Below, in pieces: positions 57,731 to 61,562 of a stretch of DNA of 64,000 nucleotides (within the stretch, counting starts at the first letter, position 1; each line of letters opens with the position of its first letter). Origin of the DNA: Elusimicrobiota bacterium. GTDB taxonomy: Bacteria; Elusimicrobiota; Elusimicrobia; JACQPE01. The stretch spans positions 1-64,000 of the forward strand of contig JACPAN010000009.1 in assembly GCA_016180815.1 (NCBI GenBank), written 5' to 3'. The notes beneath the pieces were generated by a model. It worked only from the letters and a program-made list of their open reading frames with translations, did no database searches and was not told the origin of the DNA. The position numbers were made by a program, and so were the translations under genes.

Positions 57731-58462
57731 ATGAGTAGGGAAAACAAATCGATCCTTTACCCGGCCTTTAAAGCAAGGCAAAGACGCCTTCGCAGCTTGA
57801 TTGTCGCCTCCGGGACCTTTATTATTCTAACGGGCGTGTTTATGGCTTTCTATATATTGCCCTTGATCACCTCAAACGGGCGGCAGGTTGAGGCCGCTGT
57901 TTCAAGATGGCAGTTATCAATCCCTCCTCAACAGCAAGCTTGGATCGGGCATCTGGTCATGAGCGAGGGCTTTTATAAACATGATTCTTTGATCTGGGAT
58001 TCCGCGATTAAGCATGAGTTGGACCCTAATTTGTGGAAGGCCGTGGTCATGGTTGAGTCAGCCGGCAAAGAAAATTCAAGATCCCGGGTCGGCGCCGTGG
58101 GCTTGTCTCAGTTAATGCCCCGGACGGCTGAGGCGATGGGGATTCATAAGGATGATCATTACAACCCCGCCGCCAACCTGCGCGCGGGCGCCGGCTATTT
58201 AAGCCTTCTTCTGAAGCGTTACAATGGCCGCACGGATTTGGCTTTGGCCGCTTATAATGCCGGCCCCGGCGCCGTGCGCCGTCATCAAGGAATCCCCGCT
58301 TTCAAGGAAACCCAAAAATTCGTCAATGCCGTTTTTTTGCTGAAACATTGGATCGAAGACAACCCGGAAACCTGGGCGATGACCGCGCCCGCGGGCGTGG
58401 CTGTTGCTGAAGACGCCGGGGTTCCTATCAAGCTTTTGAAATTTCAAGCCGCTACTCTCTAA
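57731..58462 (+). CDS. Membrane-anchored lytic transglycosylase (SLT domain)
   Basis: A 243-residue protein with one N-terminal membrane anchor (SLIVASGTFIILTGVFMAFYIL) and an SLT domain from about residue 90. Catalytic Glu in AVVMVESAGKENSRSRVGAVGLSQLMPRTA, then NPAANLRAGAGYLSLLLKRY and DLALAAYNAGPGAVRR, which together define family 1 transglycosylases. It cuts the peptidoglycan glycan strand, forming 1,6-anhydromuramic ends, in the periplasm. It stands alone between two intergenic regions rich in CCCTAGG-type motifs. Confidence 0.9.
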   Translation: MSRENKSILYPAFKARQRRLRSLIVASGTFIILTGVFMAFYILPLITSNGRQVEAAVSRWQLSIPPQQQAWIGHLVMSEGFYKHDSLIWDSAIKHELDPNLWKAVVMVESAGKENSRSRVGAVGLSQLMPRTAEAMGIHKDDHYNPAANLRAGAGYLSLLLKRYNGRTDLALAAYNAGPGAVRRHQGIPAFKETQKFVNAVFLLKHWIEDNPETWAMTAPAGVAVAEDAGVPIKLLKFQAATL

Positions 58463-58603: not shown

Positions 58604-60193
58604 ATGAAGAAGGTCGCGGCTTGTTCGTTGGTTTTTTTGTTTTCATTCCAACCCTATCCGGCCTTGGCTCAGGATATTCCCAATATCGAAGGCATCGGCT
58701 TGGCGCAATCCCGTTTTGACGGCGCCGAGCGCTCGGGAGCCGCTTCCGGAGGAAGCGCTACGTTGACCCCGATTCAGCTTTTTGAAGACGGCACGGCTTT
58801 GATGGAAGAGCGAACGGAATCGTTGGGGCGCACCAGGCATGACCCTTGGTGCCGCTGCGGCGTCGATTGGCATGGCGGCGAGGTCCGGGAATCCCATCGC
58901 ATCACGCGCCGCTACCGAATCGTCAATCCCGAGCTTTATTCCCAAACCAGAGCCGAAGAAGCGGCCCGTGGCGCGGGCGACGGCGCCGCGGCCAGGGTCG
59001 GCCTTCTCTCCGGTTTGGGCGTGGGCGCGGCTTCGTTCGGGGTAACGGCCGGAGGACTTCATCTTTTGCGTCGAGGGCGATTCGGCGCAATGCCCGCGGC
59101 CGTGCCGTGGGTGGTCGGCGGCGCGGTGGCCTTGGCTGCAGGCATCGGTTCCGGCGTTCATTTCGGCGACCGGGCTTATCAGCGTTCTTATGGGGAGGCG
59201 TATGAGCCGGCTTATCGCAGGGCTAGGCAAAAGGCCGATTTAGAGCCCGAGTGGGATTCGGCGAGCACCGTGGGGCCGCGCGTCGTCGAGACGTTCGACA
59301 ACCGAGCTCCCGCTGATTCACCTTGCCATTCTTCATATACGCGCCAGCCGGGACAGACGCCTGTTTTCAGTGGGGATTGCCGGCCTACGGTATCGTTGAG
59401 TTTTGACAGCGGGGCGGTTCCGGGCTCCTTGAGCGCGGTTGTCCGCATGGAGAGCGATTTGTTTACAGCTGTCGAACGCATGCGCGGGTATGCGGCGTTG
59501 ACCTTCAGCGTGGGCGATGCCTGGGGGCAGGAATGGACTTCATTGAGCGGCTTAAGCGAGTCCTCCATGATCGCGGCCGTGGGCAGTTTTCATTTGTCCG
59601 AGGCCGCTGTTTGTCCGCGTCCCTCAAGTCAACCTTACCGGCGCTATCTCAAAGCCGCGGTGTCGGTCAAGGATCGTTTTACGGGAGGCCGGCTGTCGGG
59701 GTTTGCCGATTACGAGGCGCATGCCGAGTATCTTTGTCCGGCGACCCAACCGGCTTCGCCGCCGGCGCCATCGCGATGGCTGGGCGTTCAATATGGGTTC
59801 AGCAGCGACGGCATTCAGGTATCGGCGAGCGTGCGCATCGTCAATGAGGGTGAGTTTTACCGGATGAGGGCGGACGGCGGCTACGTGGAGTTAAGGTTTT
59901 ATGCCGGCGATCGCAGCGGGCAAGAGCGCAGGCTTTTATCCAACCGGAGTTTCAGCATGACCACGCCGCGCGCTTCTTTCACTTTTCCCTTGAACAGCGT
60001 TTGCAACCGGGCGAGCTACGAATCGTACGAGAGGTTTTTAAAAGTCCGGGCCTTCCCAAGGGATGTGAATGGGCGTGCCGACGCTCATTACGGCGAATTC
60101 AAAGGCGCGCGCATGCGCGTTGTCTGCGCCGGCAGCGAGTGGGAGAATTACGAATTTCTGGAAGAGCTTGAAGAAAGCATCAATATTGATTAG
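58604..60193 (+). CDS. Secreted protein of unknown family, paralogue of the next gene
   Basis: A 529-residue exported protein (signal KKVAACSLVFLFSFQPYPALA). The N-terminal part has WCRCG, then RRYRIVNPELYSQTRAEEA, a glycine-rich hydrophobic hairpin (GLLSGLGVGAASFGVTAGGL, then WVVGGAVALAAGIGSGVHFG) and AYRRARQKADLEPE. The same elements in the same order occur in the protein at 60215-60934. The C-terminal 270 residues, absent from the paralogue, show two related beta-rich halves, each with a Cys near the end (SEAAVCPRPSSQPYRRYLKA; LNSVCNRASYESYERFLKV). No known family or function recognised. Good Shine-Dalgarno (GGTGGAGG). Confidence 0.7.
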   Translation: MKKVAACSLVFLFSFQPYPALAQDIPNIEGIGLAQSRFDGAERSGAASGGSATLTPIQLFEDGTALMEERTESLGRTRHDPWCRCGVDWHGGEVRESHRITRRYRIVNPELYSQTRAEEAARGAGDGAAARVGLLSGLGVGAASFGVTAGGLHLLRRGRFGAMPAAVPWVVGGAVALAAGIGSGVHFGDRAYQRSYGEAYEPAYRRARQKADLEPEWDSASTVGPRVVETFDNRAPADSPCHSSYTRQPGQTPVFSGDCRPTVSLSFDSGAVPGSLSAVVRMESDLFTAVERMRGYAALTFSVGDAWGQEWTSLSGLSESSMIAAVGSFHLSEAAVCPRPSSQPYRRYLKAAVSVKDRFTGGRLSGFADYEAHAEYLCPATQPASPPAPSRWLGVQYGFSSDGIQVSASVRIVNEGEFYRMRADGGYVELRFYAGDRSGQERRLLSNRSFSMTTPRASFTFPLNSVCNRASYESYERFLKVRAFPRDVNGRADAHYGEFKGARMRVVCAGSEWENYEFLEELEESINID

Positions 60194-60214
60194 TTAAGGA
60201 GGCAGATAGCAATC

Positions 60215-60934
60215 ATGAGATACAGCGCAAAGTCATGGACAGCGTTTCTTGCTTTGGGTTTGGTGATGCCTGCGTTCGGCGAGCCGACCCCGAGAGCTGA
60301 ATTAAAAATCGACCCCATGGTGAGCACGCTTCGCCTGGGCGTGATGATGGATGCGACGCCTGAGTCGCCCGTTCGCCGCGACGGCACGCAATTGGTCCGC
60401 ACGGAGCGGGGCCAGCCGACGGAGCGAATTATCTCCGGTCGGTGCAATTGCCTTGAGTACGGCGTCGTCGGCACGGATCGCGACGGCAATGAGATCCGGC
60501 AATGCGTCCGGTCGAATTGGCAGCCCGGTTCCGTTAACCGGGAAGTTGAAGTCCGCCGTTATCACCGTATCGTCAATCCTGAGCTTTACGCCAACAGCCG
60601 GGCTTCTTCAGCCGGAACGACAACCGGCATTTTAACCGGTTTGGGGTTTGGCGCAGCCGCGGCTTTGGTAACCGGTTTGGGGTTGAAGTTTTTGGCTAAA
60701 ACTAGAACACCGGTGGCCGGCGCCTCAGCCGCCATTGCCGGCGTTGTGACCGCCGTCGGCGCGGGCATGTTCTTTGGCTCAAGGGCCAAAGGCCCGGCCT
60801 ATGACGAGGCGCTTCACCGCGCGCGCACGAATCCGGATTTGGAGCCGGAGCGCAATGTGGAGAGCACTCCGATCAGGGCCATTGATACTCAGCCGCCCTT
60901 GACCGGTTCCGATTGTTCGCTGTTTAGACCGTAA
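60215..60934 (+). CDS. Secreted protein of unknown family, short paralogue
   Basis: A 239-residue exported protein (signal SWTAFLALGLVMPAFG). Shared with the upstream gene product: a CxC motif (GRCNCLEYG), VRRYHRIVNPELYANSRA, a two-segment glycine-zipper-like hydrophobic hairpin (TGLGFGAAAALVTGLGLKFL; AIAGVVTAVGAGMFFGS) and RARTNPDLEPERN. It lacks the beta-rich C-terminal half. The hairpin may insert in a membrane. AAGGAGG precedes the ATG by about 11 bases and the gap to the upstream gene is 21 bases, so the two are cotranscribed. Ends before a strong terminator. Confidence 0.7.
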   Translation: MRYSAKSWTAFLALGLVMPAFGEPTPRAELKIDPMVSTLRLGVMMDATPESPVRRDGTQLVRTERGQPTERIISGRCNCLEYGVVGTDRDGNEIRQCVRSNWQPGSVNREVEVRRYHRIVNPELYANSRASSAGTTTGILTGLGFGAAAALVTGLGLKFLAKTRTPVAGASAAIAGVVTAVGAGMFFGSRAKGPAYDEALHRARTNPDLEPERNVESTPIRAIDTQPPLTGSDCSLFRP

Positions 60935-60947
60935 GGATTGAACTTTA

Positions 60948-60987
60948 GGCGGCCGGCGGGGTTTACCCCGCCGGCCGCCTTATCTTT
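60948..60987 (+). terminator. Strong GC hairpin terminator
   Basis: GGCGGCCGGCGGGG, loop TTTA, CCCCGCCGGCCGCC: a perfect 14-bp stem (60948-60961 with 60966-60979) followed by TTATCTTT. It closes the paralogous secreted pair and precedes the next gene by 28 bases. Confidence 0.8.
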
Positions 60988-61007: not shown

Positions 61008-61562
61008 ATGAAATTCCTTGTCGCCGTCTTGACCGTCATGATCTCGGCCGGCCATCAGCCTCTGGCCGGCGAAGGACCCGTTGACGCGACGTTTATTGAA
61101 ATTCACGAAGGAGGGCGATGGCGCCCTCATCAAAATCTTCGTTTCGACATCGAGCGATTCGCCGTTTACGAGCAACGCCGTTACAGCGGCGCTGCTAAAC
61201 CCACTGGCCAGCTTGGGGCGCAAATTTCGGGACATTGGGGGCGCGCCTCCGAGGCTTCGGGCAAGGCGGAAATCCGCGTCGTCCGTCTTGAAATCCGTCC
61301 CAACGGCGCCGGTTCCCCCAGGCGTTGGGGCATCGTTGAAATCGTCGAAGGCTCCCCTGTGCCGCGCCCGCCCGGGCGTATTGCGCTTGAGCCCGGTTTG
61401 TCGCAACGGGTTTTATACCAAGCCCGGCCGGCCCCGGGCGCAGCGGCCCTTAAGCCCGCTTTAACCGAAGGAGCCGCGATTTCAGCCAGGCTGATTATTC
61501 GTATCGGCAACCGGATGGGCCGGGTTGTTCTCCCCTTAACCCGGCTTGTCGTCGCTTATTAA
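61008..61562 (+). CDS. Small secreted protein of unknown function
   Basis: A 184-residue exported protein (signal KFLVAVLTVMISAGHQPLAG). The mature part is beta-rich and basic, with FIEIHEGGRWRPHQNLRFDIERFAVYEQRRYS and a C-terminal ISARLIIRIGNRMGRVVLPLTRLVV. Not recognised. AAGGGAGGGG precedes the ATG. Its last 27 bases overlap the end of the convergent FGGY kinase gene. Confidence 0.6.
   Translation: MKFLVAVLTVMISAGHQPLAGEGPVDATFIEIHEGGRWRPHQNLRFDIERFAVYEQRRYSGAAKPTGQLGAQISGHWGRASEASGKAEIRVVRLEIRPNGAGSPRRWGIVEIVEGSPVPRPPGRIALEPGLSQRVLYQARPAPGAAALKPALTEGAAISARLIIRIGNRMGRVVLPLTRLVVAY

What the first reader, a model, noticed from the sequence alone, without database searches (positions are those of the whole stretch)
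58604..60934. New paralogous pair of secreted proteins with CxC, RIVNPELY and a glycine hairpin
Two adjacent genes share, in order, a CxC motif, RRYxRIVNPELY, a two-segment glycine-rich hydrophobic hairpin and a DLEPE motif. The longer one adds two related beta-rich units. I do not recognise the family. The neighbouring transglycosylase suggests an envelope role, with the hairpin possibly membrane-inserted.
Basis: seen in the sequence. Interest (0 to 1): 0.52.

Follow-up and report, generated by a model that had tools for sequence, protein, structure and literature searches.

The report
Paired secreted glycine-hairpin proteins in Elusimicrobia
Two neighbouring genes in an uncultured Elusimicrobia bacterium encode related exported proteins that probably anchor in a membrane with a glycine-rich helical hairpin; they belong to an undescribed, lineage-restricted protein family whose function is still a guess.

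Summary
A (58604-60193, 529 aa) and B (60215-60934, 239 aa) are adjacent, related, signal-peptide-bearing proteins (43% identity over B 100-224). A's two extra units are homologous to each other. Neither protein has a significant match in the family libraries or PDB sequences searched. They are not a lone pair: 17 family members were found (9 in this genome, 7 in its three relatives, 1 in another Elusimicrobia family), and tandem pairs recur. Architecture: signal peptide, usually an FDG motif, Y-x-I-V-N-R-x-x-Y, a GxxxG hairpin, often a KPExF tail. AlphaFold2 of B gives a confident small beta domain with the hairpin inserted before its last strand. A's extra units resemble tandem FnIII/Ig-like sandwiches and recur in other Elusimicrobia proteins. 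The hairpin loop is +3/-0 in A, B and A's orthologue, suggesting an inner-membrane hairpin with both ends in the periplasm. Best reading: a membrane-anchored A-B complex displaying FnIII-like domains. A Cdz-like glycine-zipper toxin is not excluded. The transglycosylase link is unsupported elsewhere. Separately, 6 of 8 DUF4423-type regulators in this genome lie 103-257 bp divergent from secreted hairpin genes.

The parts
58604..60193 (+). Gene A, 529 aa secreted protein: signal peptide, RFDGA motif, CRC, beta core, YRIVNPELY, Gly-zipper hairpin, DLEPE, then two FnIII/Ig-like units
58604..58735 (+). Signal peptide plus N-terminal FDG motif (RFDGA, residues 37-41) shared with other secreted proteins of this genome
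58997..59167 (+). Gly-zipper hairpin of A, about residues 132-188, loop with 3 basic and no acidic residues
   Evidence: not modelled with confidence in A (pLDDT under 50)
59375..59749 (+). Beta unit 1 of A (residues 258-382), FnIII/Ig-like sandwich
59774..60136 (+). Beta unit 2 of A (residues 391-511), FnIII/Ig-like sandwich
60215..60934 (+). Gene B, 239 aa secreted protein: the same core and hairpin without the beta units
60386..60571 (+). Beta core of B (residues 58-119), five strands, pLDDT about 90 over most of it
60578..60829 (+). Two-helix Gly-zipper hairpin of B (residues 122-205), followed by a last strand at 212-223
60947..60980 (+). Strong intrinsic-terminator-like hairpin (15-bp stem) after B, separating A-B from gene C
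   Evidence: -38.1 kcal/mol, z -6.8
61008..61562 (+). Gene C, 184 aa secreted protein; a relative lies downstream of secreted FDG/2TM genes elsewhere in the genome; association with A-B unproven
57731..58462 (+). Upstream SLT-domain transglycosylase (neighbour; not shown to belong)

Best explanation
A and B are Sec-exported envelope proteins of a lineage-specific Elusimicrobia family. Each inserts a two-helix glycine-zipper hairpin in a membrane, most likely the inner one with the basic loop on the cytoplasmic side, so that the small beta core and the C-terminus stay in the periplasm. As related products of one transcription unit they probably pack through their zippers into a hetero-oligomer. 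B supplies the bare core, and A carries two FnIII/Ig-like domains that reach out to bind a wall, outer-membrane or surface ligand. Shown by computation: homology, architecture, recurrence in relatives, the zippers, the loop charge, B's predicted beta core with inserted hairpin. Inferred: signal peptides (by eye), choice of membrane, A-B assembly, ligand binding.
For: Signal peptides and adjacency, with a strong terminator-like hairpin right after B. Shared core: B finds A at 2.3e-16; A, B and the G001 orthologue form one clade at 99/98. A has a 609-aa orthologue with the same domain order in another genus (33% identity). GxxxG-type zippers lie in 16 of 17 rows (the C5 member has none). Loop +3/-0 in A, B, the G001 orthologue and the G001 C53 member. 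AlphaFold2 of B: mean pLDDT 75.4, beta core about 90, helices 122-160 and 167-205, return strand 212-223. A's beta units: pLDDT about 75-90, FnIII/Ig-type neighbours, best Z 8.7, rmsd 2.8 over 103 aa; the unit recurs in other proteins of G001, G178, G211 and G214.
Against: No experiment and no localisation predictor was available; signal peptides were judged by eye. Eleven of 17 rows have uncharged loops and two more show no clear two-helix hairpin in that script, so the positive-inside argument covers a subgroup only. pTM for B is 0.52, and A's hairpin has pLDDT under 50. Moderate hydrophobicity would also suit the outer membrane. A-B contact is inferred from gene order only. A Z of 8.7 is near the level that models without a clear relative reach (tool note).
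Confidence: 0.45

Rival explanations
1. A and B work like outer-membrane glycine-zipper proteins (SlyB, 17-kDa antigen, Gly-zipper OmpA lipoproteins): the hairpin sits in the outer membrane and the proteins stabilise or organise it.
For: The family profile's hairpin columns weakly match SlyB (7ojf, E 0.11) and Gly-zipper OmpA lipoproteins of other Elusimicrobia (E 2.0e-5 and 6.4e-5 per genome; identified). Hairpin hydrophobicity is moderate.
Against: No lipobox cysteine at the end of either signal peptide; no Pfam Gly-zipper match in A or B; the hairpin matches span only the hairpin and may be compositional; 9 diverged copies in one genome is unlike SlyB (recalled).
Confidence: 0.2
2. A and B are a two-protein, surface-held glycine-zipper toxin pair that works like CdzC/CdzD of Caulobacter: the zippers insert in a target membrane and kill on contact.
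For: Adjacent paralogues with extended zippers recur as pairs in three genomes (G000, G002, G003). Weak hairpin matches include colicins A and S4 and a haemolysin BL component (E 0.14-0.32). Large diverged copy number. CdzC/CdzD are a two-protein glycine-zipper bacteriocin (passages of PMC5380434).
Against: Sec signal peptide rather than type I secretion; no ABC exporter genes and no candidate 3-TM immunity gene beside A-B (by eye); FnIII-like domains in A are unlike Cdz; the PDB matches may be compositional.
Confidence: 0.15
3. Lineage-specific surface or extracellular-matrix proteins: A's tandem FnIII-like units act as an adhesin or matrix scaffold, as in RbmA of Vibrio.
For: RbmA 4kkq is among the Foldseek matches (E 3.5e-5, TMt 0.41); the window also encodes an 8491-aa lectin/kelch protein.
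Against: The match is at the level of fold class; no route across the outer membrane was identified; B lacks the units.
Confidence: 0.12
4. A and B are accessory proteins of the neighbouring SLT transglycosylase, tethering or regulating it at the wall.
For: SLT gene 141 bp upstream on the same strand; both are envelope proteins.
Against: No SLT gene noticed beside other members; untestable for the G001 orthologue (contig end).
Confidence: 0.08

Closest known systems
Gly-zipper outer-membrane proteins (SlyB; PF05433, PF13441, PF13488)
   Same: Exported; two-helix GxxxG hairpin
   Different: No lipobox in A/B, no profile match for A or B, hairpin inserted in a beta core, FnIII-like units in A
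CdzC/CdzD glycine-zipper bacteriocin (Caulobacter)
   Same: Adjacent gene pair, extended glycine zippers, envelope setting
   Different: Cdz uses type I secretion and a 3-TM immunity protein; A/B have Sec signals, a beta core, and no such genes beside them
RbmA and other tandem FnIII proteins
   Same: Two consecutive FnIII/Ig-like sandwiches
   Different: Fold-class resemblance only; A adds the hairpin core
Periplasmic membrane-fusion proteins (MacA, AcrA)
   Same: Beta domains with an inserted long helical hairpin (Z 6.0-6.9, rmsd 6.5-6.9)
   Different: Their hairpin is soluble, not a glycine zipper (recalled); Z is below the level of meaning for long helices (tool note)

Membership tests
Pfam glycine-zipper families (PF05433, PF13441, PF13488) | Profile score above the curated cut-off | tested here: not met
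   A and B: no match. Of 15 members scanned, one matches PF05433 at E 0.53 and one PF13441 at 0.61. Controls: two OmpA lipoproteins pass a Gly-zipper cut-off
SlyB / 17-kDa antigen OM lipoproteins | Lipobox cysteine at the signal-peptide cleavage site | tested here: not met
   By eye: A ends ..ALAQD, B ..AFGEP; A's only early Cys is C8, inside the h-region
SlyB / 17-kDa antigen OM lipoproteins | Outer-membrane location | not testable with these tools
   No localisation data
Cdz two-protein glycine-zipper bacteriocins | Adjacent pair of glycine-zipper proteins | tested here: met
   also pairs on G000 C13, G003 C113, G002 C49
Cdz two-protein glycine-zipper bacteriocins | Type I secretion genes in the cluster | tested here: not met
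   No exporter gene between 57.5 and 64 kb (by eye)
Cdz two-protein glycine-zipper bacteriocins | Linked multi-TM immunity gene | tested here: inconclusive
   None seen beside A-B; a distant immunity gene was not searched for
Cdz two-protein glycine-zipper bacteriocins | Contact-dependent killing | not testable with these tools
   Needs experiment
FnIII/Ig-like domains (beta units of A) | FnIII/Ig-like sandwich fold | tested here: inconclusive
   Z up to 8.7, rmsd 2.8 over 103 aa; no Pfam match for the four units
New FDG-hairpin Elusimicrobia family (defined here) | Signal peptide, Y-x-I-V-N/D-R-x-x-Y-type strand, GxxxG hairpin | tested here: met
   B lacks the FDG motif (MMDA in its place)

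The most novel reading that the evidence does not exclude
A-B is one locus of a genome-wide, lineage-specific secreted system. Some twenty or more small exported proteins, most with a glycine-rich hairpin, many marked by a common mature N-terminal FDG-type motif that acts as a sorting or assembly signal, and many controlled by divergent DUF4423-type regulators, form hetero-oligomers in or on membranes and mediate contact with, or killing of, other cells.
Probability: 0.15. Interest if true: 0.75.

Novelty: new variant of a known kind. Interest (0 to 1): 0.42.

Why it matters
It defines a testable, previously unmatched family in a barely cultured phylum: 17 members, conserved architecture, a confident beta core carrying a glycine-zipper hairpin. 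It also gives an independent FnIII-like domain seen so far only in Elusimicrobia. If the wider pattern holds (FDG motif, DUF4423-type regulators, repeated pairs), it would be a new class of secreted hairpin system and would give a first handle on DUF4423 regulators, a domain named in only one paper of the library searched.

Tried and rejected
Rejected: A/B as Pfam TrbC, FUSC, AbgT or DUF4781 (E 0.054-1.5, hydrophobic chance). The match at G000 C4:108805 (E 0.006, stop inside, beside an SHMT-like gene). Eleven of the 16 genomes matched: they align from profile column 98 or later, most over hairpin columns only; three of those loci were opened, two being Gly-zipper OmpA lipoproteins and one an unrelated 549-aa protein; eight were not opened. 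G191 (E 7.7e-4, hairpin columns only). Beta-unit matches in G053 and G166 (E 0.005-0.007, with stops). C-family matches in G074, G138, G185, G043 (E 0.005-0.008). G001 C27 as DUF4423 (E 0.005, a Fic-like protein by eye). Three of 7 non-seed matches of the FDG profile (C22, C10:22141, C5:5889) judged chance by eye. A phage origin: no match in 50,697 phage records, no useful PHROG, no significant viral fold. My own guess that the 8491-aa ORF is an NRPS/PKS (written in the notebook) was wrong: it is lectin/kelch.

Led nowhere: PDB sequence searches; Foldseek on B (no match at E 0.001 or better; VIA Z up to 6.9, hairpin only; the beta core was barely tested there). Paper searches on Elusimicrobia secreted proteins, groundwater Elusimicrobia and SlyB gave nothing used here (listings only); passages of PMC8386478 and of PMC12546842 were seen and not used further. 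One alignment (A7) misaligned hairpins onto beta units and was not used for folding.

Limits: the class search scored at most 13 candidates in crowded genomes, so members could be missed. FDG enrichment (15 of 80 SP-like ORFs with the motif in the first 40 aa after the h-region, against 14 occurrences in 18,548 aa of the rest, p 3e-6) is biased, since most of the stretches were picked through these families. The mechanical hairpin test near DUF4423 genes gave 5 of 8 and missed known members on C15; its controls, 0 of 6 slices, are weak because part of them is one giant ORF.

Full report
1. What is in the window. Gene A (58604-60193) and gene B (60215-60934) are open frames on the + strand, 21 bp apart, each with an N-terminal signal peptide as judged by eye. 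A then carries two units that are related to each other (BLASTP E 2e-10, 35% over 98 aa; two-sequence profiles 91.5% probability). A terminator-like hairpin with a 15-bp stem, -38.1 kcal/mol, z -6.8 against shuffles, follows B, so A-B looks like one transcription unit and gene C (61008-61562) another. Terminator-like matches as a class are no more frequent here than in shuffles (8 found, 7.1 expected); it is the strength of this one that stands out.

2. No known family. Neither A nor B passes a cut-off in Pfam or NCBIfam, nor has a useful match in PHROGs or PADLOC. A has no PDB sequence match, and profiles of the family and of the beta units find nothing below E 0.075 in the PDB. Of 15 family members scanned singly, none reaches E 0.03 in Pfam.

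3. A family, not a lone pair. A profile of five proteins of this genome (A1) found further members at E 1.3e-30 to 5.6e-6 in all four genomes of the order, including four non-seed places in this genome (C15, C16, C24, C5). With 15 rows (A3) the class search (235 genomes) gave 16 genomes at E 0.001 or better. I accept five: the four of the own family, and G204 (E 3.1e-16, not a seed). The other 11 align only from profile column 98 on, mostly the hairpin, and are dropped; three of their loci were opened. That makes 17 proteins: 9 in G000, 2 in G001, 2 in G002, 3 in G003, 1 in G204 (aligned). Seeds score high by construction. A phylum search (340 genomes) with a narrower four-row profile gave 5 genomes, one of them a hairpin-only match, and missed G001. 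A pattern scan of genome contigs with that profile found one locus, JACQWW010000157.1, an Elusimicrobia groundwater MAG, whose contig length equals that of G003 C113; this gives the lineage.

4. Architecture. Signal peptide; usually a mature N-terminal FDG motif (absent in B); a Cys region, which is CxC in A, B and the G001 orthologue; a Y-x-I-V-N/D-R-x-x-Y strand (RIVNPELY in A/B); a hairpin with GxxxG-type zippers in 16 of 17 rows (pattern [GAS]xxxGxxx[GAS]; the C5 member has none); and, in many members, a KPExF-type tail strand. Tandem pairs occur on C9 (A/B), on C13, in G003 and in G002. A, B and the G001 A-orthologue form a supported clade (99/98; most other forks are open). The orthologue (L005, 609 aa) has the same domain order (33% identity); its upstream side is cut by a contig end, so the transglycosylase neighbour cannot be checked there. 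No SLT gene was noticed beside other members (read by eye).

5. Structure. AlphaFold2 of B on the 17-row alignment: mean pLDDT 75.4, pTM 0.52; five strands at 58-119 with pLDDT about 90, helices 122-160 and 167-205, and a strand at 212-223 after the hairpin. Foldseek found no PDB match below E 0.3; VIA gave Z up to 6.9, hairpin only. A on a 7-row alignment: mean pLDDT 63.9; the beta units are confident (about 75-90), the hairpin is not (under 50). The units resemble FnIII/Ig-like sandwiches (Foldseek 144 matches at E 0.001 or better; VIA best Z 8.7, rmsd 2.8 over 103 aa). That is fold-class evidence, not family membership. Bacterial RbmA (4kkq) is in the Foldseek list at E 3.5e-5, TMt 0.41. 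The unit is an independent domain: a four-row profile matched 7 of 235 genomes, of which G001 (a second protein with two units), G178 (two units), G211 and G214 give convincing non-seed finds (best E per genome 1.5e-10 to 9.8e-22); G053 and G166 are dropped.

6. Membrane topology. The loop between the two apolar helices holds 3 basic and no acidic residues in A, B, the G001 orthologue and the G001 C53 member. It is uncharged in 11 rows, and two rows (a short 148-aa frame in G003, and the C5 member, which shows no second apolar helix) cannot be read. By the positive-inside rule (established knowledge) A and B would cross the inner membrane with a cytoplasmic loop and both ends in the periplasm. 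For the other members this argument is silent.

7. Mechanism. Shown: homology, domain order, zippers, loop charge, predicted beta core with inserted hairpin. Inferred: inner-membrane hairpin, A-B zipper packing, and FnIII-like units binding a ligand. Rivals are an outer-membrane glycine-zipper role (SlyB-like), a Cdz-like two-protein toxin, a matrix or adhesin role, and a transglycosylase partner. For Cdz I saw passages of PMC5380434: CdzC/CdzD are glycine-zipper proteins exported by a type I system, CdzC forms outer-membrane aggregates, and CdzI, with three predicted TM helices, gives immunity. A/B lack the type I genes nearby and have Sec signals.

8. The wider pattern. A 37-position profile of the N-terminal region in the own genome gave 20 places at E 10 or better. 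The top 13 are the 13 seeds; of 7 non-seed places (E 0.006-0.37) I judge 4 to be secreted proteins with the motif in the right place (C16:61552, C4:88930, C5:105576, C10:97459) and 3 chance. Enrichment in fetched stretches is biased by how they were chosen. DUF4423 (PF14394) has 8 matches in this genome (3 over the cut-off, one of them only together with its neighbours in the frame) and none convincing in G001-G003. Two of the eight, on C21 and C3, had not been looked at before and served as a test: both lie beside secreted hairpin genes. In all, 6 of 8 are divergent from such a gene by 103-257 bp (C15, C16:74.0k, both on C5, C21, C3; read by eye); C16:63.8k and C13:111.5k are not. A mechanical test found 5 of 8 within 5 kb and 0 of 6 weak control slices. 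None lies near A-B. Gene C has a relative (BLASTP E 3e-9, 24%) downstream of secreted FDG/2TM genes on C13.

9. Novelty. The family is new to the libraries searched, and no paper holding both 'Elusimicrobiota' and 'glycine zipper' was found. Secreted glycine-zipper hairpin proteins are a known kind, so I call it a new variant of a known kind.

Noticed in passing
L079 7831-8676, L078 11539-12420, L127 2369-3232 and 5230-6093, L139 7165-8055, L140 6869-7735: DUF4423-type HTH-like regulator genes divergent by 103-257 bp from secreted hairpin genes: 6 of 8 such regulators in this genome. The two on C21 and C3 were examined as a test and fitted.
   Followed up: partly
G000 C13, C15, C16, C4, C5, C10 (L104, L079, L078, L122, L123, L124): Otherwise unrelated secreted proteins share an FDG-type motif about 10-35 residues after the signal-peptide core; possible sorting or assembly signal.
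   Followed up: partly
window 15371-40843 (-): One 8491-aa open frame with repeated Laminin_G_3 and Kelch domains: a giant lectin-like, probably surface, protein.
   Followed up: partly
L075 5819-6808 and L123 1925-2836: A weakly similar secreted 'ACxxYWP' protein (BLASTP E 2e-5) lies beside hairpin genes in two genera: a possible conserved partner.
   Followed up: partly
L074 (G001 C82), L105 (G001 C68): Dense runs of small signal-peptide proteins of unknown family, several with glycine-rich apolar segments; L105 8039-8569 is a weak relative of gene C (E 3.5e-4).
   Followed up: no
window 61008-61562: Gene C belongs to a small family in this genome (C9, C13:101.6k, C13:102.8k), with a similar-looking protein at C16:62k (L121 1871-2380, by eye).
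   Followed up: partly
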